From positions 551,652 through 615,651 of the forward strand of contig NW_003208655.1 of the NCBI RefSeq assembly GCF_000006405.1: 64,000 bases of DNA, read 5' to 3'. Positions 1 through 62,755 of the stretch are shown piece after piece. The position numbers and the translations under genes were made by a program. Under the pieces are notes generated by a model. The model searched no databases and was not told where the DNA came from. It saw only the letters and a program-made list of their open reading frames with translations. Numbering within the stretch: the first letter of the stretch is position 1; every line of letters begins with the position of its first letter. The stretch comes from Perkinsus marinus ATCC 50983. Lineage: Eukaryota; Perkinsozoa; Perkinsida; Perkinsidae.

Positions 1-43
1 CCCGAAATTCGGGCCATCTACAACACAATTCGGGCCCCGAATT
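1..43. repeat. Fold-back at the window edge
   Basis: Positions 27-43 form a perfect palindrome with 8-nt arms (AATTCGGG / CCCGAATT) around a single central C. Positions 7-27 are the exact reverse complement of the sequence just upstream of the sister duplication (about 4772-4792). The left edge is therefore a folded-back version of the sister junction. The sister copy has no palindrome here. Confidence 0.8.
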
Positions 44-900
44 CAATATATGGCTCGATCGTTATGAGCCAACTATGATCGAGCATGTTGTCCATTAAGC
101 ACGATATCTATTGGTTCTGCTCAGCTCATATGGACCGCGTTTGGGTGTGGGAGATGACGTATGAGGTGGTAAAGTATGGACAGTAATACGCTACATCAAG
201 ACACTCTATTGACCGGATGTGGTACATCGTTGGAAGCACATCTTCACTGGAGTCTCTACTGGAGACTTACCAGTCTGGAGATTCTTGAGCTGTTTGGTTT
301 GTATAATATTCGTGACGGATTCCACATTTCTATGGCTAAGTTGAATCTCTCATTACGGTTTCCGTCTGAGCCAGATGGCTCGCGGAAACCGCCTCCATCC
401 CAAAACCGCTAATATTCGTCATTAGAAAGCCTTTCTGCCACGTTGTTATTGAAATAGTGTGTCTGATGGGACATACCGTATGTCACTGATGAGCGCATGA
501 AACTCTCGGACTGAGAACGATTCTCTTGCTCGTCTGGCAGCAGGCATATCTCGGAATCACTGCATGTGCGAATCACTGCGAAGAATGTGTGAAGCCTACG
601 GCTTGAAGCTCTCCCACAGCGCCAGAATGTCACGATGTTGCAGCAGGGATGTTATACCATGCTCAAGGCTGCTGGTGACCTAGTAGGTCAGACCTACCAT
701 GCCTTCCGTGAGCGCCTCGAAACCTGAGCCATATATAGTTACTGGATGTAAGAATACTGATTACTCACTAGTATATCTATGGCCTCACATACAAACCAAC
801 AAGGTTGTTTCGTACATGCTCGAGACTCAGATGGAATGCCGTAATAGGAAGATAACTTCACCGATGAGCTTCACCAAATCGGTAACTTGAATGGGTAAAT
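34..900 (+). repeat. Direct duplication, copy 1
   Basis: This segment matches 4783-5905 in the same orientation at moderate to high identity. Shared landmarks include the start CCCGAATTCAATATA, the block TCATATGGACCGCGTTTG, and the end GATAACTTCACC. Relative to copy 2 it lacks about 290 nt (roughly 5556-5848), which is exactly the stretch carrying the ABCD C-terminal exon. The breakpoint carries an ATGC microhomology. No intact coding sequence is seen. A 1-nt-spacer zigzag palindrome (676-697) is present here and absent in copy 2. Confidence 0.8.
676..697. repeat. Zigzag double palindrome, 1-nt spacers
   Basis: TGACCTA-G-TAGGTCA (676-690) overlaps GTAGGTC-A-GACCTAC (683-697). Each has 7-nt arms and one central base, giving sense, antisense, sense order. 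The sister copy near 5390 reads simply GGTGACCTACC, so the antisense piece was inserted in this copy. Confidence 0.85.
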
Positions 901-2810
901 ATATATCTAAGCCGTTATTCAGATTTCTAAGCTTTGAATTCTGCAGTAGACATTATTGCGTATACGGTCAGAATTTTAGCGCGATGCGACCCTCCGTACC
1001 GGAGCCTCAGTGTCAACGCTCCATCATGATGAGTCAACCTTGCTTGTCACAAAGTGCCTCTCTCACCATTGCCTATACTCAGGACTCGTTTCACGCATGT
1101 ACACGGGAGAAAGGCTCTTTCTGAAAGAGTGTCATTTGTGGCTGACATGAGTACATTCGTGAAACGATCGTTTTCATTCGAAGTCTTTCGTGAAATCTTT
1201 TGAGGACTACTGTTGTTACTCCATCTAGTTTTGTCGACCGGAGCTGGAGTATTAAAATTAGATTGATTGCCAATAAATAGAATTACCTAAATTATCAAGT
1301 GACGATTCGATCACGACCTCGAATAGATCCGCCCACAGCGTGTGCAAATATGTACACGCGACTTGTGCCCACTTACTCTATCGATTCCGTGAAACACAGT
1401 GTTTCAAACACCTATGGAGTACTGACTCACAACAACATGAGGTTCTGTTCATATGGGCACTTGCACGAGTTAGAGGAGCGTTGCTCTTGTGACTCGCATA
1501 CTCTTAGTACGTTGATTATGCATGCTGATGTGATCGTAAATTTATAACGGATTAGTTGTTGCTTCGCCGTTGCGAGTATGCGTGAAGTGCAGTGTGCGTG
1601 CATTCGCAAGCGTAATTACGATGTATCTGAATGCACAAGCTAGAAGATTTACAATGCTAGAATGCTCCACTTCCTCCCGGCTGGTGGTCTGTGGTAGGGA
1701 GATCTGCCCGTTCCTGTGGGCCAGTCTGTTAGCTGCATTGTATCGATCGTTCGCTATACGTGAATCGACTCCGTTCGGCCATCATCCGCTACCTTTCGTT
1801 GATGTCGGTCCGACTATGTCGGACCGTGCGGCCCTGGCTATGCGGTATACACAGTATAGAGCGAGCGCGGGAGCCTCAATCGTAGCTTATGTGCGCATGC
1901 GTCAAACGATCGATTACATTTGGAGTCCTTCGCGGGATTCTCAGTGAAAACCCCTCTGACTCGGGAGTGTGGGATTGGAGAACCAGGGTGTCATTCGCCG
2001 AATGCTAGGATTCCCGCTGTAGCTGAGATTGCCAGTCAATCACCTGTGCAACTACAGACTAGTTGCTAGTGCAAGACTAGTATTCTGACTATCTGATCTG
2101 CATATTGACAATCAGAGACTCCGTAGCTAGCGAATACGCCGAGGTTCTATGTGGTCGGGTAACGCATGGTGTGACCATGGTTTGACACAGCTGCGGTCCC
2201 GACGCACATCCCCCGGGTAGGGTGGGTGTAGATAAAGCTCACCAAGTCAGTTGTGCATCGCTGCTCAACATGTGACGAGGTGGATGATAGCCACAGGCTG
2301 TTGAGATAAACTTGGCGGCACAGGCATGCACGTATCTTCTCACGCGCGAGCACGCACCGTGCGTGCGCACGTGCGCGCGCGTTCGCTCTTTTCAAGTTGT
2401 GTGACCTGCGTAGTGCGTGCCACGCACTGCGTGGTGTTAAGGTACACTCTCTCGTTACAGCCGTGATTTCACCGGCGCAACACTCCGTTAAGCTTCCAAA
2501 GAATTATTCTCTTGTGGATTATTGTTGACATCCTTGCCAACCTTGTCGACCGCTGCTAACTTAGCAGTGCGAAGTATTACCTTACGGCCGTATCTACTTT
2601 TAGAATTGTGTTGCCAGAGTCGCTAGCATCGACTATCTATAGTATCAATCGACCACGCGATCACGACTTCGCGTAGATCCGTCGACAGAAGGTTTAGGTC
2701 GCACAAGGCGGTTGTGGCACAAGCGCACAACCGTTATGCGGAATCTGATTCATTAGGACGTTGCACCGAGGATTTGCTGCGATCCAGGTGAATTTTTCCT
2801 TTCCATTCAC
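900..2810. other. No gene recognised; decayed repeat DNA
   Basis: Short open frames are present but none resembles a known protein. Several 1-nt-spacer palindromes occur: 1115-1129 (7-nt arms), 1390-1406 (8), 2350-2366 (8) and 2412-2428 (8). Positions 2600-2690 match 60690-60775 in inverted orientation, sharing GTGTTGCC.GAGTC and GATCACGACT.CG.GTAGATCC. A shorter version of the same block lies at 1292-1338. Confidence 0.6.
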
Positions 2811-3121
2811 ACATGGAGCTCCTCATCACCCTGCTGTTGGGGATACTCTCCTCCGCGGTAGTTGGAGACCATCGGACTCACCCGGTGTCGGAGCCCCATA
2901 CGTTGCGCTCGCCTAATGGAGTGGTTTACCGGAAATACCAGGAGAGTGATGACACATCCCTCGTGGCAGAAGAATACATTCCTCCAGCTTGCGACCTTTT
3001 TCTATGTTGGGTCGCAGTGCCTAGTGGAGCTAAGGTGCGAATATTGTAATCTGCTCTACTCTGTCAAAAGGATGTATAGTTGTTTTGAAAAAACATCGAA
3101 TCGGCTTACGGAATCCTGCGT

Positions 3122-3146
3122 CGAGCGACTCGTCACGAGCCGCTCG
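3122..3146. repeat. Palindrome, 12-nt arms, 1-nt spacer
   Basis: CGAGCGACTCGT, then a single C at 3134, then ACGAGCCGCTCG. The arms pair with one mismatch. Confidence 0.8.
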
Positions 3147-3335
3147 TGCATTGAAATTCAATGATTGAATGGAATGCAATGCACTTCCGTTCTGAAGACA
3201 ATGGCCGGTCTCGCAGCACTATCGATTCGCTAGTGTGGTTTAGAAATGAATTGAGAATAGTAGGCTGCACCCAGCAGTTAACGATGACTATGCCGGAAAT
3301 AATTTCCTCCCCAGACTGTCGTCGGCGTGGTCGCT

Positions 3336-3881
3336 ATGGACATCCCTGAAGAAAACACACCTGAGAAGATCAAGACTGCCATCAAAGCCCACAGGTGAGT
3401 CCTACATTGACGATGGAGGTCTCCTCAAACGTTGTCTTCATAGGCCGGGAGGGAGCAAGTCTGGGCAGATTGGACTCATGAATATTGTAAGCCGAATGCC
3501 GCCACTCGGTTGTTTTTTCGAACGGTAGTTGCAAACTGGACTTTCAGGTTTATGTCGTCGAAGCTTGGCGGAGGCAGAAAATTGCATCGACACTTTTGTC
3601 TGTAGCCTTCAAGGAGGTGATACCAGCGACGGACTCTCCTGTTGAACTGTGCAGTCTCTATTCCCACGAAAAATGGCCATTGAGAGTAGCCTTCAATGCT
3701 TGTTGTCTCTCAGTTTCCCAAGGCGTACCCGAACTGGGGTGTAGTCTACCTACTGGTTCTCCGCACAAACCAACCCGCGAGAGAACTTTATAGGAAGGCG
3801 GGGTTCATCAACATACTGGGTGAGTTTCTCCGTGTCTTGCTTGGCTCAATACATGTAACCGTACACATGAAGTAGAGCAGG
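3336..3881 (+). CDS. GNAT-family N-acetyltransferase, left copy
   Basis: Exons were joined by similarity to GCN5-related N-acetyltransferases, which transfer acetyl from acetyl-CoA to an amine. An exon from 3336 reads MDIPEENTPEKIKTAIKAHR and ends at GTGAGT. The next exon (about 3444-3487) gives PGGSKSGQIGLMNI. An exon after CTTTCAG carries VYVVEAWRRQKIASTLL, the family motif A (R/Q-x-x-G/K-I-A region) that binds the CoA pyrophosphate. A last exon (from about 3717) gives PNWGVVYLLVLRTNQPARELYRKAGF split over motif B, typical of the GNAT C-terminus. The true N-terminus may lie upstream. A second, inverted copy lies at 63545-63990. The substrate cannot be told from sequence. Confidence 0.6.
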
Positions 3882-4067
3882 GCTCGAGCTTTCAAGCTTC
3901 CAGCTGCTGTGACTCGGCATCAAGCTCAGATGTCATCCACAACTTTTCAAAGATAATATGTAGTCTGATACACCCTCTTTGGATCCTCAGATACTCCCGG
4001 AGATACTCATGTCATCTACGCGCGCTATAATGAGGGATAGTGGTTCGAATATGGGACTGACCTGCGA

Positions 4068-4089
4068 CCCTAAGGCTTAGGGCCTAAGC
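4068..4089. repeat. Overlapping 1-nt-spacer palindromes
   Basis: CCCTAAG-G-CTTAGGG (4068-4082) overlaps GCTTAGG-G-CCTAAGC (4075-4089), the same sense/antisense/sense zigzag seen at 676-697. A further 8-nt-arm example, CGGAGACA-A-TGTCTCCG, lies at 4155-4171. Confidence 0.8.
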
Positions 4090-4697
4090 GTTCAGGCTTT
4101 AGAATTTCTATTTTGCTAGCCTCGCTGCATCGTGTCACGAGTACATCATCATCTCGGAGACAATGTCTCCGTGTGCTTTCTCTGTATGCTTTTTACATCC
4201 ATAGATAGTATTGTTATCTGATATTATCATCAGCTATTTCTGTCTCCAGTCACTTTTCTTTCGCTGAGTCACTAAAACCAGGCCACCCGCATGCTGCAGA
4301 ATACTATTCCAGTGCCTTTGTTTGAAAGGCATTTTTCATTACCCGAGCCCAGCTCGTGGATACTTTTCAGCGAGAAGTGTTAGTCTATAATAGGCATGCG
4401 ATTGTTCGTTCCATTGTCGTTATTTGCCGAGTATTGAAGTCGATTTTTCGTGAGGCCACCCTGCCTGGTTCGATTGATATCAACGAATTGTGTTCACTTG
4501 TGGTGCCAGGCCTGGGTGAACGGAGGGCAAGCTGAAGTATCTAAAGAGCAGTTTCATAGGAAATAGAAAATTAACTCAATGAATTGGGTTCCAAGGTCTT
4601 CGCCTATAAGTGATACAGCAAAGCATAGGCATGATGCGTTCTGTGATGTCTTCGAACTCACGCTCTGGGGTGAGGAATTTCAGATTAGGACCGAATC

Positions 4698-4742
4698 TGT
4701 GCGACCAGACGTACCGAATCATTCGGTACGTCTGGTCGCACA
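4698..4742. repeat. Perfect palindrome, 22-nt arms, 1-nt spacer
   Basis: The left arm (4698-4719) begins TGTGCGACCAGACG. The centre is one C at 4720. The right arm (4721-4742) is its exact reverse complement. No flanking direct repeat or terminal motif of a known transposon is visible. It is far longer than expected by chance for this spacing. Confidence 0.95.
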
Positions 4743-4855
4743 CGCTTCACTTATCGGGACCATTATCCCTCATGTTGATGTGTTGTAGATGGCCCGAATT
4801 CAATATACGGATCGATCCTTATGAGTCAACTATTATCGACTCGATCATAGTCGAT

Positions 4856-4878
4856 CATGCTCGATCAGATCGAGCATG
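4856..4878. repeat. Copy-specific palindrome, 11-nt arms, 1-nt spacer
   Basis: CATGCTCGATC-A-GATCGAGCATG. In copy 1 only the right arm exists, following ACTATGATCGAGCATG, so the left arm is an added inverted copy. More fold-back pieces (ATCGACT .. AGTCGAT) lie immediately upstream. Confidence 0.9.
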
Positions 4879-5198
4879 TTGTCCATTAATCACGATATCT
4901 ATTGGTTTGGCTCAGCTCATATGGACCGCGTTTGCGGTGTGGAAAATGACGTATGAGGTGGTAAAGTATAGACGGTAATACGCTACATCAAGACACTCCA
5001 TTGACAGAGTCTGATAATCACTGGAGTCTCTCCAGTCTGGTAATTCTCAAGCTGTTTGCGTTGTAGGTGGCCGGCGAAAACCGCCTCCATTCCAAAACCG
5101 ATAATATTCGTCATTAGAAAGCCTTTCTGCCACGTTGTTATTCTGTGAGCCTCAGTAGAGAGGTTTGATATAGTGTGTCTGATTGGACACACCGCATG

Positions 5199-5219
5199 TC
5201 AGTGACATGATGTCACTGA
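5199..5219. repeat. Copy-specific palindrome, 10-nt arms, 1-nt spacer
   Basis: TCAGTGACAT-G-ATGTCACTGA. Copy 1 reads CCGTATGTCACTGATG at the same place, without the left arm. Confidence 0.9.
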
Positions 5220-5466
5220 TGAGCGAATGAAACCTTCGGACTGAGGACGATTCTCTTGCTTGTCTAGCAGCAGGCATATCTCGGAATCGCTGCTAGAATG
5301 TGTGAAACCCACAGCGTGGAGCTCTCCCACAGAGCCAGACTGTCACGATTTTGCAGCAGGGATCTTATGCCACGTTTAAGGTTGCTGGTGACCTACCGTG
5401 CTTCACGTGAGAGCCTCGGCACTTGAGCCATATGTAGTTACTAGATGTGAGAATACTGATTACTCA

Positions 5467-5487
5467 ATAGTAGTGAGTCACTACTAT
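5467..5487. repeat. Copy-specific palindrome, 10-nt arms, 1-nt spacer
   Basis: ATAGTAGTGA-G-TCACTACTAT. Copy 1 reads GATTACTCACTAGTATATC here. The inserted 11-mer is the reverse complement of the adjoining sequence. Confidence 0.9.
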
Positions 5488-5623
5488 ATCTATGGCCTCA
5501 CATACAAGTCAACAAAGTTATTTCGTACATGCTCGAGACTCAAATGGAATGCTCATAAAAAATTAAATTCAATAACAAATTTTATCCCATCAGTGATGTA
5601 TCGCATCAGCATGAGCAATTTAG

Positions 5624-12500: not shown

Positions 12501-13417
12501 CTTCTAGTCAATGCCATTCCTAAACACTGAAAGCGACCAGTGAACGGATTCAGATTATAAAAATGCAATTTGATTTTCGTAGGTTGAAACGAGTTTTCAC
12601 CGAATGAAAGTTCAAACTCGTAAATGAAATTTGTTGGTCAAAATTGAACTTGCGGAAGCGAAAAAAATAAAGTACTTCCAGCAGTTGCCGCTATCACTGT
12701 GTCTAGCGTCTATTCAATGCCAACTCATCACACGACCATACACTAAGTGCGACCATCCAACTAGAATGGGTCCTCGCAGCTATTGATACTATCACATACA
12801 GCACTCAGTGCTGTATGTGATAGTGCAAGGCCAGTGATGTCAGCACTGTGCTGAGCACTGGCCTTACACCATCACCAACAACGACCCTCCAGCTTAGCAC
12901 ATGGCGTCGTCGACTTATCAAGCTGGCGGCCCTTACCTGGTTGTCCACGCACAAGCAGTCCCTTTTCCTCAGCGTCCTTCAACATCCATACGGCAGCTCG
13001 ATCTTTTATCGACCCACCAGGGTTCAGAAACTCACACTTTCCCAAGATAGTGCGTCCAGTTTCCTGAAAAAATATTCACCTTCACCACCCTGGCGTGATT
13101 CACAGAGACTGTTCCGATGCCTCTAATACTCGGAAACCTTCCTTATCGATGGTATGTTGGAGCATTCTTACTCGACTAGCGTGTCGCAGTTCAACCATAG
13201 GAGTGTTGCCCACGAGGGATGTGAAGTCCTTATAGACGCTACGAGAAGCCACAATACCACCGGTACTGATACTCAGCAGAGGACGAATGTACTGCCCTGG
13301 CAACATGTTATCGATTACAAAACTGCATCGCCTTTCCACGAAAAAGAAACACCATAAGAGCATAGAAATGACGAGCGGATGATGATGCCAAGCCCGATGT
13401 GACCATTGATACAACAC
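9574..13417 (-). CDS. Cysteine synthase (O-acetylserine sulfhydrylase), multi-exon
   Basis: PLP-dependent beta-replacement enzyme making cysteine from O-acetylserine and sulfide. Exons in order: [15 protein letters not shown] (about 13200-13330), [15 protein letters not shown] with the PLP lysine (about 12955-13060), [20 protein letters not shown], the phosphate-binding loop (12040-12190), [17 protein letters not shown] and [17 protein letters not shown] (11700-11815), [19 protein letters not shown] (about 11180-11290), [20 protein letters not shown] (about 10990-11110), [20 protein letters not shown] (10806-10900), [10 protein letters not shown] (about 10132-10165), and [16 protein letters not shown] (10030-10086). 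A possible last exon at 9574-9691 reads [20 protein letters not shown]. Two introns carry the large repeat element, and intron 10087-10131 is tRNA-like in antisense. Confidence 0.8.
10087..10131 (+). repeat. tRNA-like intron (antisense to host gene), 45 nt
   Basis: The + strand reads GCAGGTTCGATTCCCACGCC, a T-arm and acceptor. On the minus strand it is exactly an intron of cysteine synthase, from donor GTAGTGCAGG to acceptor ATGGTCAG. Removing it joins [10 protein letters not shown] to [13 protein letters not shown], which fits the enzyme family. Confidence 0.85.
10393..10555 (+). mobile_element. Intron-resident element family 1, copy A
   Basis: Forward orientation: starts GAATATATGTTTGC and TCCTCAACTGA, contains CAGAAACCAATAAAAATTCC and TTTCCTAAGAATTTCCATA, ends GACCATGTGCATATTTCCCC. 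It lies in a cysteine synthase intron, antisense to the gene. Confidence 0.85.
11330..11485 (+). repeat. 145-bp intronic duplication, copy 1
   Basis: Nearly identical to 12240-12390 (ACAAGAATAAAACTTGATTT, GAAACGATTTTTTCAAGGAG, AGATCGCTTGAAGATGAAAG). A third, partial copy lies at 12545-12640. All are inside the cysteine synthase gene span. Confidence 0.85.
11498..11681 (+). mobile_element. Intron-resident element family 1, copy B
   Basis: Forward orientation: AATATATATTTTTGCTTTCC at the start and TTGCCCATGTACATATTTTC at the end, with the conserved core GGAATCAACGAGAATTTCCC. The end abuts the exon ending FDNIANKK of cysteine synthase; the donor GTGGGCACTGG lies about 20 nt outside the element. 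Confidence 0.85.
12440..12770 (-). pseudogene. Decayed duplicate exons of cysteine synthase
   Basis: Two partial copies of the exon encoding the [11 protein letters not shown] loop lie upstream of the good exon (12040-12217): about 12455-12520 ([11 protein letters not shown], then a stop) and about 12680-12745 (further decayed). Each is accompanied by a copy of the intronic duplication. They look like relics of tandem internal duplication, and I see no sign that they are used. Confidence 0.7.
12788..12865. repeat. Compound hairpin cluster
   Basis: A perfect palindrome with 18-nt arms (ACTATCACATACAGCACT) and a one-base centre (C at 12806) spans 12788-12824. It is followed at once by AAGGCCAGTG .. 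CACTGGCCTT (12827-12865), which encloses TCAGCAC-T-GTGCTGA (12840-12854), again a 1-nt spacer. It lies in a cysteine synthase intron. Confidence 0.9.
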
Positions 13418-13452
13418 AACGCAAGGTTTCGAGGGTGTTAGATTATCATTCG

Positions 13453-31532: not shown

Positions 31533-31668
31533 CATTTAACGTCAAGTGGCGCAATACTATATGAAAAACCCGATATTCGCGCTATACAGCAGTCGTGATT
31601 CACGACTCGTGAAATATATTTTTCACTAGCGTTTTTCATATGGCGAGTGAAACTCCACTGGTGATACG
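31533..31668 (+). repeat. Repeat family 4, copy 3, with inserted palindrome
   Basis: GTCAAGTGGCGCAATACT, ATGAAAAACCCGATATTCGC, TATACAGCAGTCGTGA. It carries AGTCGTGA-T-TCACGACT (31591-31607, 1-nt spacer), where copy 1 reads AGTCGTGGAGTATACC. Confidence 0.75.
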
Positions 31669-37504: not shown

Positions 37505-37790
37505 ATATATATACGGGGCGGATATGCCAAAGCTCAGAACTTACCACCTAAGTGAAATCATTTTCTTAAGCGGGGCGGATTAGCCGCCGCGGCTATAATA
37601 CGCCCCAAGATATGTCTCAGTAAGAACAACTTATCTAACCGGGGCAGTTATGCCACAGCCCCACGATATGCCTTACTCGAACCGAACAATCCTCCAAGTG
37701 CGGTTATGCCATCGCCCCAAGATATGCCTCAGTAAGAACAATTTATCTAACCGGGGCGGCTATGCCACAACCCCAACCTTGGAATCCGTG
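37505..37790 (+). repeat. Tandem array next to histone H4
   Basis: Four or so degenerate units of about 60 nt with the core GGGGCGGTTATGCCACAGCC and CAAGATATGCCTCAGTAAG, AACAATTTATCTAACC. Two more units lie at 39165-39265, at the same position relative to the second H4 gene. CCCC/GGGG pairs make each unit a potential stem-loop. It lies downstream (3') of both minus-strand H4 genes. Confidence 0.8.
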
Positions 37791-38473: not shown

Positions 38474-38764
38474 ATGATATGCACAACTGCAACAGCAAGA
38501 GCCAGATTCGTTCCCAACACAAAACACATTCACTCAGAATCATCAGGAACAGACTGAACAAGGGACTTCCTCCTCACGTGAATGCCATCAATACGACTGG
38601 GCATCACCGAAGTCTCGGGGTTCTGAGTGTCACACAATGCAGCTTACTCATACTCACAAGGAATGTTCTCCATCTGAGAATAACATACGTTTTGTATGCT
38701 GAATCACGAAGAGCGAGCGAGAAGAAAATATTTAGTACGCAATTATCAGTGTTACTCAGAGTAG

Positions 38765-38795
38765 CTTCGTGTAGGGTAACTTACCCTACACGAAG
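38765..38795. repeat. Palindrome, 15-nt arms, 1-nt spacer
   Basis: CTTCGTGTAGGGTAA-C-TTACCCTACACGAAG, perfect, in the 5' flank of the divergent H4. The homologous flank of the canonical H4 lacks it. Confidence 0.93.
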
Positions 38796-42187: not shown

Positions 42188-42225
<38 letters not shown>

Positions 42226-42540: not shown

Positions 42541-42549
42541 AAACAAAAC

Positions 42550-43559: not shown

Positions 43560-45400
43560 ACATTCACCAAGTAATGGCTCATTCATTTGTCTCTGCGTGC
43601 ACGATCAGGTGCATGCGTGCACAAAGTCTGATACATGAAGTGGATCACATCTTCAGGGTGTTGTGATATGATGCACGCGACTCACATGAATTCGTGGCTT
43701 TTGACGAAATGGGAGTTCTCAACCGCGAAAGAGTACTTGTTTTTGTACCGAAATGGGAGTTCAAGCCATGTCACATTCGTGAGGGGCTATCTGGTGTTCG
43801 AACTCGGCCGCATGAGGGAATCAGGATTTCCAATGGTGAACGATAGAGGGAAGGGTGCTTTCGGAAAAGTACTTTGACCGCTTAACACTTGTATGTTTTT
43901 GTAAACCCCCCCTGCGCACCAAGGAAGGAAGCCCCCAAGGTCACCCCATAAGCGAATGATGGGAAGCCGGGGGCGCCTTTGAGTAGATGGACGATGCGTA
44001 CCACGTATTACTCATCATAGAAGAACGTTTTCATCGACCGCCAGACCATACATTTCCATAACCAGACTACTCATTCAACGGGCTAGCTCTAATTGTGAGC
44101 GGTCAGACTTCTTGCCAGTAGCAGGATCATTGAGGTGGGGGGTGGAGGTGGGAAGGTGTCGCCGATCGAGAAATCTCCTCTGCTGAGTTGGAACTATTAT
44201 TTCGGACCCGCGGAGGTTTTGCGGACGAAATTGGAATTTCTGCGATAGAGTGAATGGGGGCTCTATTGACGCAATTCAAGGTTCTATACAGTGTTATGAC
44301 TGGAGGATCCACGGGCGTGGTTGAAGTCAACTGATGTTCTTGCGTGCACCACAAGAATGTCACTACGTGCGACGAGGATGGATGGACAATGTCCATTGGA
44401 CACCAGCATCGCCCATGGAAACTCGACCTTTTCTGCATCATTTCTCCTCTTCTACTCTGGATATTGTGGACTCCATCCTAGCACGTGATCGAGTTGAATA
44501 GTGAAGACGGCCAGTCAGAGTTGTAGCTTTGTTCGCTTCATCATGAATAACCTCCCATGGATTGTCGGCTACCGTAGCAGACCGACATATAACGGTTTCT
44601 GCCCACTCCACGATCGATCGTAGACGCTTGCCCTAGCGGATAACGAATTTCTAATGATCAGAGCGCCCGCAATCATGAGAACTCTCGTAAACAAGATGTT
44701 CCCATATATAACATCTTGTCCTAAGACAAGATGGACAAGACATCTTGTCCATCTTGTCCTCACCTAAGTCCATGAGAATTTTTTTACAATCCCAATAGAG
44801 TCAATTCATACATTCAGGAGGGGGAAGTCCTTTCACTTCCGGCCAACACCCAGCACCAGCAACCCTGAATTGATCCTATATCCCAGCTCAGCATCCACCT
44901 CCCGAGTCGGAGGATTTTCAACATATTTTCAATTCTATCCTACTGTAATGTATTCAGAGATATCCCTTCCGAGGAAGAGTTTTCGGTGGATCACGAGGAG
45001 CCAGCAGTAAAGCCGTTTACAATGTTATGAAAACTTAGTTTGATTTTCTTGAACTATTTGCTTTTGAGTTTGCAGCTGCAACTAGTTTTACGTAACGATT
45101 TTAGTAATGGCTTTTAGCGACTATGAATATTAATCTACTGCAAAATTTCACCGACGAGGTTTCCGGGTTTCCAATATGCTGGATAGGGACCCGCGTAGTC
45201 TCTACGATCATCGTAGGCACTACCAAGATCCTATGTCTTGCCTCAAGCACGTTCCTTTCGCACTATAAAAGTAACAAGTCTTCTTTGTGTGACCATGGGG
45301 TTGTTCAATGGTCAAATTTGGATCAACGATCCCTAATAGACCGATAGGAACGTTATGCTCATATTACGTTCTAAACTAGAATTTCTAACTCACTCGTGAA
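43560..45400. other. No gene recognised
   Basis: Short frames at 43635-43877 (+) and 44127-44441 (-) are open but unrecognised. Palindromes occur at 44382-44396 (ATGGACA-A-TGTCCAT), 44725-44758 (16-nt arms, 2-nt spacer) and 45202-45216 (CTACGAT-C-ATCGTAG). AAATGGGAGTTC recurs at 43708 and 43751. Confidence 0.5.
44725..44758. repeat. Palindrome, 16-nt arms, 2-nt spacer
   Basis: GACAAGATGGACAAGA-CA-TCTTGTCCATCTTGTC, with another ACATCTTGTC just upstream (44711). It is one of few long palindromes here whose spacer is not one base. Confidence 0.92.
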
Positions 45401-45403
45401 GCC

Positions 45404-47517: not shown

Positions 47518-47520
47518 AAT

Positions 47521-49700: not shown

Positions 49701-49739
49701 GAAATCATGAATTTGTTGTCAAAATTTCCTACTATCACT

Positions 49740-51230
49740 TAAACTTTAGTAGAGTGAAGCTGAGAGAATGAGCTCGAACTGTCACAAGCCGACACTGGCC
49801 GACGCGAAAGTGCCATGAGCCGCTACTTCCGTGTCAGCAGAAAAGTGGATTTTCCAATCCGAAAATCTAACCCAACTCTGAACAACTAACTCTTGACGAC
49901 GCATTCAGCGTGTTTCTACAATAAACGCTTTTACAATACCTGCTTGTCCATTACAATTAGGCTCGGTAGTTTATCTCCGGGTACGTAGGATTAGTCGGCG
50001 ACCCCCGGGACAGGGGCCAGGGCCGGAGGCCCTGGCTATTTAAAGAAGGCTCGTCACGTCTCTGGTGTCCTCTCTGATAACACTCTGATGGCTCTGATGT
50101 CCTCTCTGCAGTACAGTTATTGACCAAAGTCAGTCTTCGCCCGGTCAAGAAGCTTCTCCCGTATCGAGGAATTCCGCCGAATGCGCTCCTGGCTAGGTCT
50201 CTGGGTGGGGAATCTAGGCTCAACCCACGATAATGTGATATTGAAACTATCCCAGCACTCAGCGTCGTATGACTACCAGTCATATGTAGAACATGAACTG
50301 CGACTACTAGTCTGCTAGTCATCAACCACCCATCGTACAAGTTGTACGGTACAACTCGGCATGACGAAGTCTCGGACTTTCGGGATTCTGCAGTACACAG
50401 ACAGCTGAAACCCCTGTTTCATCTAAGCGAATAGTCCGCTGCGGATTTCTTGAATATGTTAAAGGCTTAGGTGCCGCAGACATATTCATCCCATAACTTG
50501 CATATCGGCGTATATCATGTTTGCATAGGTCAGTGCTCTGTGGTTTGTCACTCAGTAGATCCGTGTGAGAGAGGTTACGATATCCACTCAATGCAACGTG
50601 CAGTGCACACGATGACACGCCACCCACAACTGATTCAGTTAGTGTCATTAGGGAAACTGCCGAATCATGAAGGCTGCAGTACAACTGACCCACTTCGCCG
50701 AACTTCTCAGTGATACAGCGTTAGCCGAGACTGTAGAGAAGGCACCCCGGAAAGAGGGAACATAAGGTCGAGAACTGGCAGGACGAGTTGTCCCGTCTGG
50801 AGAACGGAAATGAGCGACCGTCAGATGGTCACCATCGTTCATAACAATCATTCATCCCTGAATACACCCCCTTACTTGAGTTATCACCACTATACAAGAT
50901 TCAATTTTCTTCTTCCGTAATCTCACAACTGCCTTAGCGCAGATATCCGCCGCTGTGGCCTTATAGTCTCCACGGAACAACGCGTGCCTATAATAACGCG
51001 GACCCCAAGTTCGATCCCGGCACCCTGCACTTACTCGCCAACATAGCAGAACGGTGACATCAGATGCGCCAATGTAACCACATTATTACTGTTCTCGATG
51101 AGCTCAATAAGCTGAACTCCCAATGCGGGCCGCAACCTACGACAGCATCACCATTCCAAGCGAAATACTTCTTCACAGAGGATTTCTTAGGAAAGGCGAA
51201 TTGCGTTGGGAACGTAGGCCAATTGCGACC
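49740..51230. other. No gene recognised; contains tRNA-like relic
   Basis: Short frames only. 50340-50356 is a 1-nt-spacer palindrome (AGTTGTAC-G-GTACAACT). 50933-51035 carries TTAGCGCAGATATCCG followed by CCCCAAGTTCGATCCCGGCA, a decayed full-length tRNA-like unit. The inverted GCCAGGGCC .. GGCCCTGGC pair is at 50016-50036. Confidence 0.55.
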
Positions 51231-51234
51231 TACT

Positions 51235-54267: not shown

Positions 54268-54359
54268 AGAATAGGGAGAAACGATAACTCCGATCAAGAG
54301 CGACTTCACAACAATCTCAATAGCAAAGCCAAGATCAACCTCAGGTATCACCATGCCTC

Positions 54360-54850
54360 GTCCAAATCCTTCCAGGCGATCGTTACACCAATATTGTGAA
54401 ATGCTATATCGACCCTTACATGCGATACTTACCCTTAAAATACGATCCCAATTCGATTATAAATTTCCCAATCCCTTCGAAAGCTGCGATCACCATTAGC
54501 CTCCCTCAACTACACAACAACAGCACTTGATAGGAACAACGACTTCAGCAACATGTCTGGTATAAATCAAGTAAGCGCGCTCCTCCATCTCCCAAACGCC
54601 ATGCCACATAAGTGTTGATGATAATGGATTATACCCTACGAAAAGTATAGCTCGCCTGTGACACGGACGCAGTAGCAATAAGAGACGAAACCACTACCGA
54701 GGAGGGTAAATATCCAATCACTTAGTACGAAAATTTCGGAAAAATTTTTGCCGAAAATTCTCGAGAAATTCGGTTTTTATCAAGTCATTTTAATCTCTCC
54801 TCTCACGTGAATGATCTCCTCGAAATAATACAGGAAGATCGTTCTAGATT
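54360..54850. other. No gene recognised
   Basis: About 490 nt upstream of the CDKAL1-like gene. Short frames only; AT-rich near 54720-54790. Confidence 0.5.
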
Positions 54851-56180: not shown

Positions 56181-56434
56181 ACCTCAGCCTAACTATACCG
56201 TATTACACTTATAGATTTTATCCACGTCTATATTTCCGCAAGAAATCGATTATGAATTCGAGAGAAACCTCACAGTAGGAGCATCCGATGCAGCTCCAAT
56301 ACGCTTAGGAGCATATCTCCTAAAGTTTCTCTCGATAATCAGCCTAAGAACTCCACTCGAGAAGACTGCCAACCATCGAGATCGATTTCTCACGATGTGG
56401 CCGAGGTGTGGTACGACAGGAATTAAAAATTCGG

Positions 56435-57079
56435 CTAAAAACCAAACCCAGTACTCACTTGTGTTTCAGTGAACATATATGATATGCGCTTCTCCTTCCC
56501 AACACCCACATGCACCACCTCAGCCAGAGTAGTAATAGCAATTTTTCGCTGACCACCTTGCGCACAAGTACTTTTCACGAGCACAGACAGCCCAAAGGTG
56601 CTTTCTGTATACTCCTTAGGAATTCTGCCAATCCATACCAACACCCCAGCCTCCTTACCCTCAACACTACAGCAGCTATTCCTAGCGCTAGGCTTTGACC
56701 GATAGTCGCTCCCATACGCCCACAGTTTACACTTTCTATTCAAGCAGCGAACCGCCACTTTCAATCGCATACCATAACCGAACTCCCATTCGAACTTCGG
56801 CAGTTCAATTGCAAAATACCTGGGCACGTTCAAAGAGATATCGCATTGAAGTTCTTGTGGACACTTCATCGTAGTTCTAGGAGCAGCAACGCTAGCACGA
56901 GGCACCGCCGCAACTGTGGTTCTCTTCTTGCCGACCTCTGCCAACTTCAACCAGCTTTCTGCGATACGTTTTTCAACATCCACCAATAATTCGGCGAAGG
57001 CAAGATGATCCCCCCTTGAAGAGGGTTCCAAGTCAGGCTTAGTATCTTCCAGTGCGAGCTGCTTCTCACTTGCAGCCAT
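56435..57079 (-). CDS. Hypothetical protein, first exon
   Basis: The start ATG at 57079 gives MAASEKQLALEDTKPDLEPS, LAFAELLVDVEKRIAESWLK (helical), then MKCPQELQCDISLNVPRYFA, EWEFGYGMRLKVAVRCLNRK and TESTFGLSVLVKSTCAQGGQ. About 206 codons to a donor at GTGAGTACTGG near 56460. Likely spliced to the exons downstream (56170 and beyond). No family recognised. Confidence 0.5.
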   Translation of the reverse strand: MAASEKQLALEDTKPDLEPSSRGDHLAFAELLVDVEKRIAESWLKLAEVGKKRTTVAAVPRASVAAPRTTMKCPQELQCDISLNVPRYFAIELPKFEWEFGYGMRLKVAVRCLNRKCKLWAYGSDYRSKPSARNSCCSVEGKEAGVLVWIGRIPKEYTESTFGLSVLVKSTCAQGGQRKIAITTLAEVVHVGVGKEKRISYMFTETQVSTGFGF

Positions 57080-58139
57080 TTACAACTACAATACTAACGA
57101 GATCACGCGCTGAAAATACTAAGGCCACAAGTCTAGAGAGCTACACCGATATTCACGAACGAGGAATCCAAACGCTGAAGCAGGTTAGTTTCAATCGCTC
57201 ATGATACAGCTCTAAGACCAGTCATCAAAAGATAACACTATCGCAGTGGGCTTTTTAATGAACCGTATGAAAAATGCATGAGAAATTTCGCCACCGGGGA
57301 TTGAACCAGCGATCAAATCCGCACCGGCATAGATATGGGATATGCTTCCGCTCGTCAACATTTTTTCCTCTACTGTCAACTTTTTCGCGCTCGCCCTACG
57401 GACAAAATTCATTAAATCAGAGTGTCTCGTTCGACCTGCCTTATCCTGTTAAGGACGTAACTGAAAACTTAGAGACCCTATAGCGGGTCCTCTCTTGAAC
57501 ACGGCCACTACTCCGGTGCCTGGTTCACATGAGTAACATACTCAGCTTGGATAACAGTTCGGGTTTCGGGCGCCCCGTCGAATTTCGGGTTGGGTTTCGG
57601 CTTACCATTTCACCGGTAATTTCTTCTCTTCTGGGGAAGCTCGTTGTTTGGATTGCACTTGCATCACAGACTGTAATTTACAGTCATTACTCGGGTAACA
57701 GTTTTTAGCGTGCGAGCGGCCACGCTACTGTGATTGTCGTGTGAGTTAACCCTCAGTCTGTTCTTATATCAGTCCATACCGCACTTCTTGCAAATGATAG
57801 GGCGCCAAGATTAGAATTTCTCGCCGCTGACCGCCCACGGCCAGAAGGGCGTGTTGGCAATAGCATCGAGCTTGCATTGAAGTACCTTCTAATTATCGCT
57901 ATAACAACAGGCGACTTGAGATGTCAGAAAATTCGTTAGTCTTCAACCTTATACGGCTTATACGATTGATAACAGATTCTATTAGCAACTACATACCACA
58001 AAGTGAAGTCCCAAAAAAGTCTAACATTTCCCCTCCCCAATGACTGCTTCACTCCATCGAGTGTTGGCAGTAAAAAATACTAGTCACCAGCAGCATTGCT
58101 TCTTGGACACATTGTGGCACGCCTTTTACGCTTGATTCG
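57080..58139. other. Intergenic; tRNA-like arm and palindrome
   Basis: No gene recognised. 57270-57345 (minus) reads GATCGCTGGTTCAATCCCCG, a tRNA-like arm upstream of the 57079 start. 57669-57685 is a 1-nt-spacer palindrome (GACTGTAA-T-TTACAGTC). The remainder contains nothing I recognise. Confidence 0.55.
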
Positions 58140-59687
58140 CTACTTGACCACTGCTTGAGTTCGATCTGGCTGATAACGGCCATGAGCGAGGAAGCCTTCT
58201 GAGCTTATGAAGAGCTTCCGTTGGAGCATCGAGACAGCCAGAGTGACGATGATACTGCTTCCCATCACAACGAGAAATACAATCATCGCAGTTGACGAAT
58301 AAAGTCCGCCTGGCAAAGTGTACATTATGAACCCACCCGCGAAAGTGCCATACGTAGCCCAGCCGTACATTAGTATAGCGAGGTTAGCAGCAAGAACACC
58401 ACATACCGCGCCAAAGGTTGTTACCATCGAGTAAAGACCACAGTACGCAGGCATGCAAATGGTAGCAGCAACAAGATCGGCGACAAGGAAAAGATTGATG
58501 ACCGATATTCCCCTCATAGCAAGGGCGATCGCCGGGATGTTCATCAGGACCAATAGCAGTCTACCCCAGTTGAGACTCCAACCACGCTTCACAAACTCGG
58601 CCGCGAACACAGAGAGGAGCGCTGACTGTAGCGAATCGACACTCGACGTGCTGAGACATATGGCGAGGACCACTACAGCCCCAACCGCCGCGTTCGGCAA
58701 TACTCCCAGCAGATCGAAGAATGCCAATGCCTTCGTGTAAGGATGCAAAGTAAGGTGAGGTACCGGACGAGCTCGATCCTGTGCTTCAGCGAGCATGCCT
58801 AGGATACCAAAGGCGAGCATAGTGAGGAACACGAGGGAGCCACCGAGGAGCAAGCCCATCCTGAGATTGAAGTCGTTCTTGGCTGCCCATACCCGTTGCC
58901 AAACGACCATATCGAGCAACTGGAAACCGAGAATAGCCAAGACGAGCGTGATGAGACTTTCCAAGCCCAAAGTAGTAAAGTTGGCAACAGCATTCCAGTT
59001 AGCAGTAGTGACGGTCACATTGGTCGAGGTGGCGACCACAGCAAAGACTATGAGGCCAACTGCGGCTAAGCCCTGCGCCATATCGGTAAGAATGGACACG
59101 GGAAGGCCGGCTACTAGAGTGTAACTTAAAGTGATTACGGCAACTGAGAGTGTTGATAGCCAAACTGGGATGCCAGAGAAGATTTCAATAACCTGACCAA
59201 CGGCAGTGTATTCAGCCGTCATGCTGATCCACATTATGAAGATAGACACCAGTACTGCATACACTTGGACGAGGCGACCAAATCTGGCCAGAATCCAGTC
59301 AGTTGCCGCGTACCCTTCACTGCCCCCCGCAGACATATAGGAGTTCAACTTTGCTCTTATCCTCACACCGAGTATCCAGATGATAGCCATAGGGACGACA
59401 CAAGCGAGTGCATACCCGATCACCCCCCACCAACCCAGAAATGTCCCAACTTCAGGCGCAGCATAAATAACCCACGTACCCATACCACTAGCGAAATACG
59501 ACGCTCCAATCCATGCCCAGCTGAAGCGTTTCCTGGCAACATAGAAGTCCTCTTGGGCATCAGTATTTGCCTGTACCATGACGCGGTAACGGAATAGTAG
59601 TAGTACATAGGCGACAGCCGCGAAGACGCCTAGAGTGATGTAAAGGATGAGGTAGCCCGAAAGCTTAGAGAGTCGATACGATAGCAT
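58140..59687 (-). CDS. Sodium:solute symporter family transporter (SSS/SLC5-like)
   Basis: Single exon, 515 residues. About 13 hydrophobic segments start with YLILYITLGVFAAVAYVLLL. Family features are a large N-terminal FYVARKRFSWAWIGASYFAS block with ASYFASGMGTW, SYTLVAGLPVSILTDMAQGL, GFQLLDMVVWQRVWAAKN, and ICLSTSSVDSLQSALLSVFA, the conserved S-S-x-D-S-L Na-site region. Overall it looks closest to the DUR3-like urea/polyamine branch, but the substrate is not determined by sequence. Intronless, unlike most neighbours. Start at 59687 is the first ATG before the first helix. Confidence 0.88.
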   Translation of the reverse strand: MLSYRLSKLSGYLILYITLGVFAAVAYVLLLFRYRVMVQANTDAQEDFYVARKRFSWAWIGASYFASGMGTWVIYAAPEVGTFLGWWGVIGYALACVVPMAIIWILGVRIRAKLNSYMSAGGSEGYAATDWILARFGRLVQVYAVLVSIFIMWISMTAEYTAVGQVIEIFSGIPVWLSTLSVAVITLSYTLVAGLPVSILTDMAQGLAAVGLIVFAVVATSTNVTVTTANWNAVANFTTLGLESLITLVLAILGFQLLDMVVWQRVWAAKNDFNLRMGLLLGGSLVFLTMLAFGILGMLAEAQDRARPVPHLTLHPYTKALAFFDLLGVLPNAAVGAVVVLAICLSTSSVDSLQSALLSVFAAEFVKRGWSLNWGRLLLVLMNIPAIALAMRGISVINLFLVADLVAATICMPAYCGLYSMVTTFGAVCGVLAANLAILMYGWATYGTFAGGFIMYTLPGGLYSSTAMIVFLVVMGSSIIVTLAVSMLQRKLFISSEGFLAHGRYQPDRTQAVVK

Positions 59688-59689
59688 GG

Positions 59690-61345
59690 TCGTCGTTGAT
59701 GTTGTTGATTACTCGCTTCCTACGCAGGTGTTGTCCTGATCAGGTTCTAACGGTGTGATCTCAGCAAGTACCAAGGAGGAGCAATGATACGAGCACCCGT
59801 GCGAGTGGAAAAGAATGAATAACCTACAAGGAACCAACTAGTCAACGGAATATCACGTTGTCTGGTGGTATACAGTGAATTTATCCTAGCACGCGTGGGG
59901 AAAATGAAGAGCAAAATTCGAACTGCACGCATAGTCCGTGTTGTGATTGTTCTTGCGTGCAGATGCATAGTAGTAAACCTTTCGGGACTTTTTTCAATAG
60001 CTCGTATGCTAAAGCCCAGGTTTATCCTTTACCCTCCCAGGGAGGGAGGGAGGGAGGGCCTCCCTCGTCCTTACAATAGAGAACACTGCGTCCTTTGTTT
60101 GTGTTACACTGGCACGCAGAAGTTCTATCACATCACTAACGATACGACAGAAATCGCTAGATGGTTTAGACTGTATCCCCGAGCCAACTGAAAAGGACCA
60201 CCCTCAGATGTTGTGGCTCTAGAGTTTCCTCCTGAAAACTGATATAGTGTCCTGCTCGTCATCATGGCATGGTATAACTCCTATTCCTCTTCGCTCCGCC
60301 TTGCTAAGTACCAGAGTTGACTCCCAACAAGAGCTCAACTATGGCGCAGAAAAGCCTTTTGTATATGCGTGCAAGGGTGTAAGGGCATAATTGATTGTTG
60401 AAGAGCGCAAGTAATACAATAGTTGTAGTTGTGCAGAGTGCACAACTATGGAATCTTAGCTTAGCTCGAAGCTAGTTGATGACTTTATGAGTACGATTGT
60501 AGATAGAATCTCTAGATTCCATTAACTATTGCCTTGAGTTCCCAAATGGTTAACAAAAGTGCAAGAATAACCATTCCCACTTGCTAGAGTCACAGTAGTG
60601 AACACAGAGTGACTCGGATAGAGAGACACAATGCTTGACCACGAAATACAGCTGCCTTGTCCTCGCATGCCAACAACTCCTTACAGTTGTGAACGGATCT
60701 ACTCGGAGTCGTGATTGAATCATCCGTTGATACTCTAGGTAGTCGATGCTACTGACTCCGGCAACACGATCTCCCGAGGTATCAGATAATAACGGAGTGC
60801 AGAGACCTTGTGTACCACACCATCAACACCTTGTGTTATAACATACCAGAAATGGTCATCGCACATATCCCATCTCAGCAGGAACGGTCACCAATCCCAG
60901 TCCGATACGTACACGTACCATCATACTGTGTAAATACCCAGACTCAACTGCTATGCATTGCACGACACAACCCATTGTGATCTCTACTAGCCTCAAACTG
61001 CTAACACCAGTCGACGAACCCTCAATACTACTGAGCTAACAGTTCATCTCTTGTGCGAAGAACCGTTTCGTCAGAAATACGCGGGCAAAGCAACAGCGAC
61101 ACTTTCGCTATATTTTTACGCCGGCGAGCAGTCAACGGGAGACAGAATGATACCCTGCTTGCCTTCTGAATCGCCCTGGTCGGGTCGGAATTTTTGCTCA
61201 CGCACGGACGGACGAACGGATGCACGCGAGTGTCCCGCTCGCTCCGCAATTCATGAGTGCAGTTGTAGACTCGGCTAATAATACATTGATGCATCTGAAG
61301 TGTGCGTTACACGCATGTGAAAGGCTATTGAGAGCCCAAGAGCAA
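59690..61345. other. No gene recognised; repeat-rich margin
   Basis: Short frames only. 60038-60060 is a (GGGA)n tract. 60426-60448 is a palindrome with 10-nt arms and a 3-nt spacer (TAGTTGTGCA .. TGCACAACTA). 60690-60775 is inverted relative to 2600-2690. Confidence 0.55.
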
Positions 61346-61394
61346 TGAGGAGAAACCAAGCAAGAGGCGGTAGATAAGCTTTACACCAAAGTAT

Positions 61395-61416
61395 GGCTCG
61401 GGGCCCGAGCCTCGGG
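61395..61416. repeat. Zigzag double palindrome, 1-nt spacers
   Basis: GGCTCGGG-G-CCCGAGCC (61395-61411) overlaps CCCGAG-C-CTCGGG (61404-61416). The left-hand copy (about 6975) reads simply GGGCTCGGGCTC on the equivalent strand. Confidence 0.85.
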
Positions 61417-61464
61417 TTTGGTGAAGAAACCAGCTTTTGGCTACCCTACGGCTCTTAAAGAGTC

Positions 61465-61535
61465 GCATCAACATCAATGCCGATTGGTTAGTAAAGGGTC
61501 ACTCTTTACTGACCAATCGGCATTGATGTTGATGC
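61465..61535. repeat. Long palindrome, 35-nt arms, 1-nt spacer
   Basis: The left arm starts GCATCAACATCAATGCCGAT. The centre is one C at 61500. The right arm pairs at 33 of 35 positions. The inverted sister copy near 6905-6925 has only a single arm, so the palindrome arose after duplication. Confidence 0.95.
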
Positions 61536-62728
61536 AGATTCAAAAAGTCAAGTGTTGATCACAGCTCCAAATGCCCTACCACGGAGCCATCGGAAGTTCA
61601 GAGACTTTGAAAGAGTTCAAGGCTGACATTAGTTATGCGCACGCCAGGCTGATATTAAATATCAGCCTCAAAGGCCTCACTGTGAAGTTGAAGGACCGAT
61701 GATGATGATGATTCAGACTACGACTGTACAGACTCAGAGCCCCTCTGGCCCGATACTGGTTCAATCGCTTACACTGGACCTCAACCCGGGTTGTTGTATC
61801 GCTTTGATGGGGCCTAGTAATAGCACTCTCATACGCTTCGTGCTCCTCTTTGGTGGATGACTAATCGGGTGGAAGTGGCAAGTCGGCGCTTCTTCGTACA
61901 CTCAATGGGACATGGCCGATATATGAGTGGCTTTCGTTCACGACGTGACCGTCACGTGTATCGTTCCATGCGTTTGGCATGCTTTGGTGAGCTGGCTCGT
62001 CCCAAACATGGGGTTGTACTAGGACCCCAAGGACTGTATATGCTTAGAGAGTTCAGCACTAAGCAACAAATCACGTAGGTTGGCAGATAGATGTCTTTGG
62101 AGTTACTAGAGGTTTTCAAATATCCCGATGGCCCCCCAGTGAGCCCTGCTGCTGAGGACAGAGTAGCGCAATGCATGCGTATACGTGAGGAGCTGTTAGT
62201 ATCCACCCTAGTTTCGACTCCTTGGTGCCAGGCGAGCTCGATAAGCTTTCTGGCCGCCACACCTTTCCCGAGGCGGAGCAGGAGAAAGTCGTATTGGCTG
62301 ACTACTACTTAGACTAAGCGCGCATCTCAAGCAGTCATCAATGAGAGCGAACTTTGTTCTATGATGGAGAGGTCGAGCCAATACGACTAAGTGACAATAC
62401 TAAGTGACTTAGTGGGAAGTAAAACTTACTCGCCCGGACAGAACGTCAGCATTAGACAGATCATATACACCCGTCTATTTAAGATACCGATTTGAAGCTC
62501 ATTGGTGAAGTAATCTCTCTGTCATGCTGACTGTCACAGTCAGACTGTGGTGTTGTTATGGTCTGTTCAAAACCCGACATGGTGCACTTCACAACTTCTA
62601 TTCAGGTGGAAACGCTATCCCACTATGTGTAATTCGATGGGATCCTGACGTTGCATAATAAGTTAACTCCACCGTGCCACAGCTTCACCGTCTGCACGTT
62701 GGCGGACGTCAGGGATGATAAGTTGCTG

Positions 62729-62755
62729 TCAGCGTCAGCAAATTGCTGACGCTGA
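62729..62755. repeat. Palindrome, 13-nt arms, 1-nt spacer
   Basis: TCAGCGTCAGCAA-A-TTGCTGACGCTGA. The equivalent left-copy site (5604-5620, GCATCAGCATGAGCAATTT) has one arm only. Confidence 0.92.

What the first reader, a model, noticed from the sequence alone, without database searches (positions are those of the whole stretch)
27..62755. Abundant palindromes with exactly one central base
More than 30 perfect or near-perfect palindromes with arms of 7-35 nt have a spacer of exactly one base. Arms of 10 or more: 3122-3146, 4698-4742 (22), 4856-4878, 5199-5219, 5467-5487, 12788-12824 (18), 24801-24829 (14), 25094-25114, 31019-31045 (13), 38765-38795 (15), 61465-61535 (35), 62729-62755 (13). 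By a rough random estimate (64000/4^10) fewer than 0.1 perfect arms of 10 or more are expected at this spacing. Long palindromes with spacers of 2 or 3 were much rarer. A one-base loop cannot form a stable hairpin, so a fixed-offset template switch or enzymatic end-joining is more likely than simple snap-back.
Basis: partly seen in the sequence, partly recalled or inferred. Interest (0 to 1): 0.93.

Follow-up and report, generated by a model that had tools for sequence, protein, structure and literature searches.

The report
Scars of hAT-type transposon excision
The odd one-base-centred palindromes in this oyster-parasite genome look like a dense fossil record of jumping genes being cut out through DNA hairpins, many of them repaired into the same 14-base scar.

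Summary
In detail: the window has 49 spacer-1 palindromes with arms of 7 or more, against about 3 expected and 1-11 at every other spacer from 0 to 40. The peak recurs in 163 kb elsewhere. The genome is Perkinsus marinus or close kin.

28 of the 49 are halves of one 22-base motif: w1..w7 + revcomp(w1..w8) + w2..w8. In 226,758 bases there are 14 exact and 24 one-mismatch copies for an 8-base w, none exact for 6-7 or 9-12 bases, and none in 20 simulations. Related copies lack exactly 14 bases at five such sites.

hAT-type excision predicts this: an 8-bp target duplication and a flank hairpin offset by one base, centred on the complement of the base beside the element. The w bias resembles hAT targets. 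The genome holds a hAT with a 760-aa frame and 8-bp duplication; the MULE family read has mostly 9-bp ones.

The chemistry is known. New are the density (roughly 6,000 genome-wide, extrapolated) and the dominance of one product. No element-occupied allele was found, and many longer palindromes stay unparsed.

The parts
676..697 (.). triple scar, w=TGACCTAC, exact
   Evidence: related copy lacks exactly 14 bp here
1108..1129 (.). triple scar, 1 mismatch
1391..1412 (.). triple scar, 1 mismatch
2413..2434 (.). triple scar, exact
2553..2574 (.). triple scar, 1 mismatch
3127..3148 (.). triple scar, 1 mismatch
3149..3170 (.). triple scar, exact
4068..4089 (.). triple scar, exact
4149..4170 (.). triple scar, 2 mismatches
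   Evidence: about 0.6 two-mismatch copies expected by chance in the whole 227 kb
4683..4742 (.). long product, d=30, 2 mismatches: left unit w1..w7+revcomp(w1..w8), then right hairpin unfolded 15 bases beyond the 8-base unit (palindrome 4698-4742)
   Evidence: ancestral form readable in related copies
5195..5216 (.). triple scar, exact
   Evidence: 14-bp insertion against related copies
5463..5484 (.). triple scar, 1 mismatch
   Evidence: 14-bp insertion against related copies
12833..12854 (.). triple scar, 1 mismatch, next to long palindrome 12788-12824 that shares part of w (possibly stacked events)
31592..31613 (.). triple scar, exact
37574..37595 (.). triple scar, 1 mismatch
38751..38795 (.). 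long product, d=22, 2 mismatches (palindrome 38765-38795)
44382..44403 (.). triple scar, 1 mismatch
50334..50355 (.). triple scar, exact; the only one of 38 inside an ORF of 150 aa or more
50816..50837 (.). triple scar, 2 mismatches
57663..57684 (.). triple scar, 1 mismatch
61396..61417 (.). triple scar, 1 mismatch
61450..61535 (.). long product: left unit (1 mismatch) then right hairpin unfolded 28 bases beyond the 8-base unit (palindrome 61465-61535, 2 mismatches)
   Evidence: not listed by the full grammar at up to 3 mismatches
61936..61957 (.). triple scar, 1 mismatch
   Evidence: 14-bp insertion against related copy
62528..62549 (.). triple scar, exact
62722..62755 (.). long product, d=13, 1 mismatch, junction inside a short microhomology (palindrome 62729-62755)
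   Evidence: the related copy does not settle the ancestral base here
63188..63209 (.). triple scar, 2 mismatches

Best explanation
The palindromes are excision footprints of hAT-type cut-and-paste transposons. An element inserts and duplicates an 8-bp target w. On excision the transposase nicks the flanking DNA one base outside the element, and the flank closes on itself as a hairpin whose tip is the complement of the base beside the element; unfolded, this is a palindrome with exactly one central base. Host enzymes open both hairpins some way from their tips, leaving 3' overhangs. Because both flanks carry the same w, the overhangs carry revcomp(w) and w and can anneal over 8 bases. Trimming and gap filling then give one product: w1..w7 + revcomp(w1..w8) + w2..w8, a net gain of 14 bp. 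When annealing fails, the opened hairpins are joined elsewhere and leave longer palindromes. Shown by sequence: the motif, its 8-base specificity, the 14-bp gain at five sites, the complement rule, and hAT elements in the genome. Inferred: that an element sat at each scar, that a hAT (and which one) made it, and the annealing step (about 0.6 on its own).
For: Exact motif only for k=8: 14 exact/24 one-mismatch/6 two-mismatch in 226,758 bp, against k=9 0/0/2, k=10-12 0/0/0, and, with fewer constraints, k=7 0/4/32 and k=6 0/18/167; without the one-base loss at each side k=8 gives 0/0/7. 20 third-order Markov simulations gave 0/0/0.55 per sample. With a 6-base core, 22 exact hits: first centre is the complement of the base after the right copy in 18, second centre the complement of the base before the left copy in 18, both in 14. 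Symmetrised logo of 38 w's: T at position 2 and A at 7 at 0.45 (background about 0.26), T at position 1 only 0.09; Hermes prefers nTnnnnAn (PMC10368747, PMC2803484, passages). Five triple sites show exactly 14 extra bases against related copies. Long palindromes 4698-4742 and 61465-61535 are each preceded by w1..w7+revcomp(w1..w8) with 1 mismatch, so both flanks' hairpins are visible; four products at d=13-44 occur with <=2 mismatches, none in 6 simulations. hAT in the genome: L050 391-3441, TSD GTCGTGGT, TIR CAGGGGTTTATC, 760-aa frame with PF05699; L006 266-1981, TSD GTGTTGAA, with a PF05699 hit in the locus. [quoted passage not shown] Kat1, a domesticated hAT, makes hairpins mostly 1 nt from the TIR (PMC4763223, passages).
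Against: No element-occupied allele of any scar was found. Only 14 hAT-domain hits (a lower bound) were returned, and the 5' end of L050 matches 2 places, itself included, few beside thousands of scars. Known hAT footprints have variable palindrome lengths, whereas here exact shorter products (d=1-6) number 3, 2, 1, 0, 0, 1 against 14 at d=7. With one mismatch and a satellite locus (L032) left out, d=3-6 exceed simulation (37 v 14.0, 10 v 2.7, 8 v 1.7, 2 v 0.3); control units of 7 and 9 bases also exceed theirs at d=3-4, by less, so some shorter products may exist; two-mismatch hits at d=8-10 are 9 v about 1.2. 21 of 49 window palindromes are not at a triple centre. Of 26 long palindromes listed, 4 are triple centres, 5 fit the two-hairpin grammar with mismatches (4720, 61500, 38780, 62742, L021:2207), 1 (L042:351) fits only in AT-rich low complexity, and 16 do not fit plainly, among them 12806, 24815, 25104, 31032, 61657 and 4867. 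In one search, 12 sites have 14-bp insertions but only 5 are triples, and 8-bp insertions are commoner (19).
Confidence: 0.85

Rival explanations
1. Excision scars of another superfamily with 8-9 bp target duplications (MULE or Merlin) rather than hAT.
For: MULE domains are commoner (28 hits) and one sits in the same contig about 19 kb from the window; Merlin-type domains give 4 hits and Merlin leaves 8-9 bp duplications (PMC8101967, passages); MULE Muta1 makes 8 or 9 bp ones (PMC5225508, passages).
Against: The one MULE family read has 9-bp duplications at 3 of 4 copies and 8 matching bases plus one mismatch at the fourth, while the motif at k=9 is absent (0/0/2). With target duplications, Muta1 excision in yeast was about 90% precise. 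Other MULE families were not read. Whether Merlin makes flank hairpins is not known to me.
Confidence: 0.1
2. Replication template switching (quasi-palindrome type) with a fixed offset, without a transposon.
For: It makes short-spacer inverted duplications (recalled), and could account for some of the 16 long palindromes that do not fit the two-hairpin grammar.
Against: It gives no reason for a unit of exactly 8, two direct copies of w, complement centres at both ends or the nTnnnnAn bias.
Confidence: 0.04
3. A domesticated hAT-like nuclease (as Kat1 in Kluyveromyces) or a transposase acting on bare target sites cuts the chromosome with an 8-base stagger and hairpins the ends, with no element there.
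For: Scars far outnumber the hAT domains returned; hairpin-making domesticated hATs exist (PMC4763223, passages).
Against: I know of no enzyme that duplicates the target before hairpinning; w varies freely, unlike the fixed site of Kat1.
Confidence: 0.05
4. Chance, assembly artefact or functional operator-like palindromes.
For: The genome has gaps and repeats; raw reads were not seen.
Against: Simulations give none with 0-1 mismatch; scars differ in sequence, lie in many contigs, carry later substitutions and show defined 14-bp differences between related copies.
Confidence: 0.01

Closest known systems
Ac/Ds (hAT) excision footprints in yeast, Candida and Arabidopsis
   Same: Palindromic insertions centred on the complement of the base next to the element, from flank hairpins; palindrome arms up to 20 nt in S. 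cerevisiae (both as reported in PMC5873905, passages).
   Different: There the palindrome lengths vary; here the full 8-base copy dominates among exact products, with some possible shorter ones. There they are induced in assays; here they are a standing record in a natural genome.
Hermes and Kat1 hairpin chemistry
   Same: Hairpin on flanking DNA (PMC4763223, passages); nTnnnnAn 8-bp target for Hermes; one-base offset for Kat1.
   Different: Biochemistry was not tested here; the maker in this genome is not identified.
P nucleotides of V(D)J coding joints
   Same: Opened hairpins leave palindromic bases at joins (recalled; the parallel is drawn in PMC1978519, section 7).
   Different: Here two copies of the target appear to direct the join and fix the product at +14.
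mPing/Harbinger repair by target-duplication microhomology
   Same: Duplicated target bases guide repair (PMC4561436, passages).
   Different: There the repair is mostly precise after a staggered cut; here the same idea would act on opened hairpins and add 14 bp.

Membership tests
hAT excision footprint | 8-bp target unit | tested here: met
   Exact motif only at k=8; hAT elements L050 and L006 have 8-bp duplications
hAT excision footprint | Palindrome centred on the complement of the base beside the element (one-base offset flank hairpin) | tested here: met
   18 of 22 at each centre, 14 of 22 at both
hAT excision footprint | Target bias nTnnnnAn | tested here: met
   T2/A7 at 0.45 in 38 w's; a bias, not a rule
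hAT excision footprint | hAT transposase in the genome | tested here: met
   14 PF05699 hits, lower bound; 760-aa frame in L050
hAT excision footprint | Element-occupied allele at a scar site | tested here: inconclusive
   Empty related sites found, none with an element; only a few related copies could be read
hAT excision footprint | Variable palindrome length (usual, not strictly defining) | tested here: inconclusive
   Exact products: d=7 14, d=1-6 3,2,1,0,0,1; one-mismatch d=3-6 above simulation; longer ones at d=13,14,22,30 and at 61465
MULE excision footprint | Target unit equal to this genome's MULE duplication | tested here: not met
   9 bp at 3 of 4 copies of the one family read; k=9 motif absent
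Merlin excision footprint | 8-bp Merlin element and flank hairpin | not tested
   4 domain hits; boundaries not read

The most novel reading that the evidence does not exclude
In this unicellular parasite, repair of transposase hairpins is nearly deterministic: hairpins are opened at or beyond the target boundary and the two complementary 8-base overhangs are annealed, so that most scarring excisions are a heritable, fixed +14-bp mutation. The genome would carry thousands of them, a natural archive of hairpin-end repair in a lineage where every excision is germ-line.
Probability: 0.4. Interest if true: 0.75.

Novelty: new variant of a known kind. Interest (0 to 1): 0.6.

Why it matters
Hairpin-ended breaks are usually studied in assays with a limited set of products. 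Here a genome keeps a readable record of perhaps six thousand (19 scars with 0-1 mismatch in 163,058 sampled bases, scaled to 54.46 Mb; the sample was not random). The dominant product makes the question of where hairpins are opened and how they are rejoined testable from sequence. It also offers a cheap, element-independent way to look for past hAT-type activity in any genome: count w1..w7+revcomp(w1..w8)+w2..w8 as a function of unit length.

Tried and rejected
Simple TIR+TSD search in the window and the loci then held found one clear hAT (L006), and a relaxed search of hAT loci found L050; the other four 8-bp cases sit in L032/L033, three of them flanked by the self-palindromic CACTAGTG. The idea that NHEJ is missing was not supported: a weak Ku match in one locus and a DRMBL (Artemis/Pso2-like) match exist. 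The three near-identical hAT-domain copies L046-L048 gave no usable element boundary. The region 61380-63000 matched only itself and the copy already in the window, so gave no further empty sites. A PDB search with the L050 frame gave nothing meaningful. CDKAL1 relatives did not name the organism. On checking, the one-mismatch control hits at k=7/d=8 and k=9/d=6 proved not to be satellite: one search shows none of them in L032 and all in loci that hold the k=8 motif, so they are probably its shadows; only k=8/d=6 (23 of 26) is satellite. The published record was searched. 'Perkinsus' with 'hAT transposon' gave 0 papers; 'Perkinsus', 'transposon' and 'palindrom' gave 5, of which I read passages of PMC7789003 and only the listing of the other four; none describes this as far as I saw, but subscription journals are not held.
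Full report
Observation. I recomputed all palindromes with perfect arms by spacer. The 12 listed ones are present. In the window, spacer 1 has 49 palindromes with arms of 7 or more and 11 with arms of 10 or more; simulation gives 3.0 and 0.1, and the other spacers from 0 to 40 have 1-11 and 0-1. In 163,058 readable bases from 20 other stretches, spacer 1 has 49 with arms of 7 or more against 8-17 at spacers 0 and 2-15. The peak is real and not confined to the window, and is denser in the window than in the sample.

Organism. A Hsp90 fragment from the same genome (L054) is 100% identical over 519 aa to Perkinsus marinus ATCC 50983 and 97% to P. olseni, so this is P. marinus or very close kin, an alveolate parasite of oysters (recalled). 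The genome held is 54.46 Mb in 347 contigs.

The unit. Many palindromes come in pairs with centres 7 bases apart. The pair is one motif: w1..w7, then the reverse complement of w1..w8, then w2..w8. For this one-base-offset form, unit lengths 5-13 in the window gave 8 exact copies at length 8 and none at any other length. In window plus sample (226,758 bases) length 8 gives 14 exact, 24 with one mismatch and 6 with two; length 9 gives 0, 0, 2; lengths 10-12 nothing; lengths 7 and 6, with fewer constraints, 0, 4, 32 and 0, 18, 167; length 8 without the one-base loss at each side 0, 0, 7. Twenty third-order Markov simulations gave 0, 0 and 0.55. 28 of the 49 window palindromes are centres of such motifs.

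Rule for the centres. With a 6-base core, 22 exact hits exist. The first central base is the complement of the base that follows the right-hand copy in 18, the second the complement of the base preceding the left-hand copy in 18, and both in 14. This is the signature expected of a hairpin on flanking DNA with a one-base offset on each side of an 8-bp duplication.

Empty sites. The window holds diverged duplications of itself, and further copies lie elsewhere. At five motif sites (676, 5195, 5463, 61936, and one in L044) related copies lack exactly 14 bases, which equals 2 x (8-1). In the gap count that did not look for motifs, 12 sites have 14-base insertions, 5 of them motifs; other lengths occur too, 8 bases at 19 sites.

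Long palindromes. 4698-4742 and 61465-61535 are each immediately preceded by w1..w7+revcomp(w1..w8) with one mismatch, and their right arms run 15 and 28 bases past the 8-base unit. Both hairpins are thus visible in one product. A grammar allowing any split of palindromic bases found long products at d=13, 14, 22 and 30 (d is the distance between the two centres) with up to 2 mismatches, against none at d=13-44 in 6 simulations; 61465 has more mismatches and is not listed there. Of the 26 long palindromes, 4 are motif centres, 5 fit this grammar, 1 fits in low-complexity sequence only, and 16 remain unparsed.

Shorter products. Exact hits at d=1-6 are 3, 2, 1, 0, 0, 1 against 14 at d=7. With one mismatch and the satellite locus L032 left out, d=3-6 give 37, 10, 8, 2 against simulated 14.0, 2.7, 1.7, 0.3, while d=7 gives 26 against 0.3. 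Control lengths 7 and 9 also exceed their simulations at d=3-4 (65 v 51, 38 v 17; 8 v 4.8, 5 v 1.3), so part of this is local repetitiveness. The full-length product dominates, but is not shown to be the only one. Footprints without palindromic bases, and precise excisions, would not be seen at all.

Which transposon. The 8-base unit, the one-base offset and the nTnnnnAn bias (Hermes consensus in PMC10368747 and PMC2803484, passages) point to hAT. The genome has at least 14 hAT dimerisation-domain matches; L050 is an element with a 760-aa frame, TIRs CAGGGGTTTATC and duplication GTCGTGGT, and L006 another with duplication GTGTTGAA. MULEs are commoner by domain count (28), but the family I could read has 9-bp duplications at 3 of 4 copies, and the 9-base motif is absent. 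Merlin was not resolved.

How it works. Shown: the motif, its length specificity, the centre rule, the 14-base gain at five sites, hAT elements present. Inferred: excision produced each scar; hairpins were opened outward of the tip leaving 3' overhangs; the overhangs annealed across revcomp(w)/w. The last step explains why one product dominates although the long palindromes show opening sites up to 28 bases past the target. An alternative is that hairpins are opened exactly at the target boundary; the two long products with a clear left unit of exactly 8 palindromic bases (and a third, 38780, with 3 mismatches) fit that as well.

Context and scale. 1 of 38 motifs lies in an ORF of 150 aa or more although these cover 19.7% of the bases. 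Scaling 19 sample motifs gives about 6,000 per genome, a rough figure from a non-random sample. In a single-celled organism every excision is heritable, which may be why the record is so dense (inference).

Known work. Palindromic Ds footprints centred on the complement of the base next to the element are known, with arms up to 20 nt in S. cerevisiae (PMC5873905, passages; see also PMC1978519, passages and section 7). The chemistry is therefore not new. Density in a natural genome and dominance of one product are what I did not find described in the searches named under Tried and rejected.

Noticed in passing
window 58140-59810 (- strand): A TPP riboswitch (59700-59810, 64.3 bits) sits at the 5' end of a 522-aa sodium:solute symporter frame, a likely thiamine-regulated transporter.
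   Followed up: no
window 52603-54456 (- strand): CDKAL1-type tRNA methylthiotransferase (UPF0004 + radical SAM) in a single open frame; named relatives include chromerid, apicomplexan and dinoflagellate proteins.
   Followed up: partly
G000 C201:529142-534806: MULE of about 5.7 kb with 50-bp TIRs and a 9-bp duplication, with three close copies (C200, C164, C244); the C201 copy abuts a short repeat matched at full length in nine other places.
   Followed up: partly
window 3411-7019 and 61361-63948: Inverted pair of diverged duplicated segments (71-95% identity by piece) holding several of the scars.
   Followed up: partly
G000 C306, C60, C40: Hsp90-family matches with in-frame TAG/TGA codons, perhaps introns read through or decayed copies.
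   Followed up: no
window 12788-12854: Long palindrome (arm 18) and a triple scar share part of w, perhaps two stacked events.
   Followed up: partly
L032 (C254:50001-60000): Satellite of roughly 64-bp units that accounts for 23 of 26 hits at k=8/d=6.
   Followed up: partly
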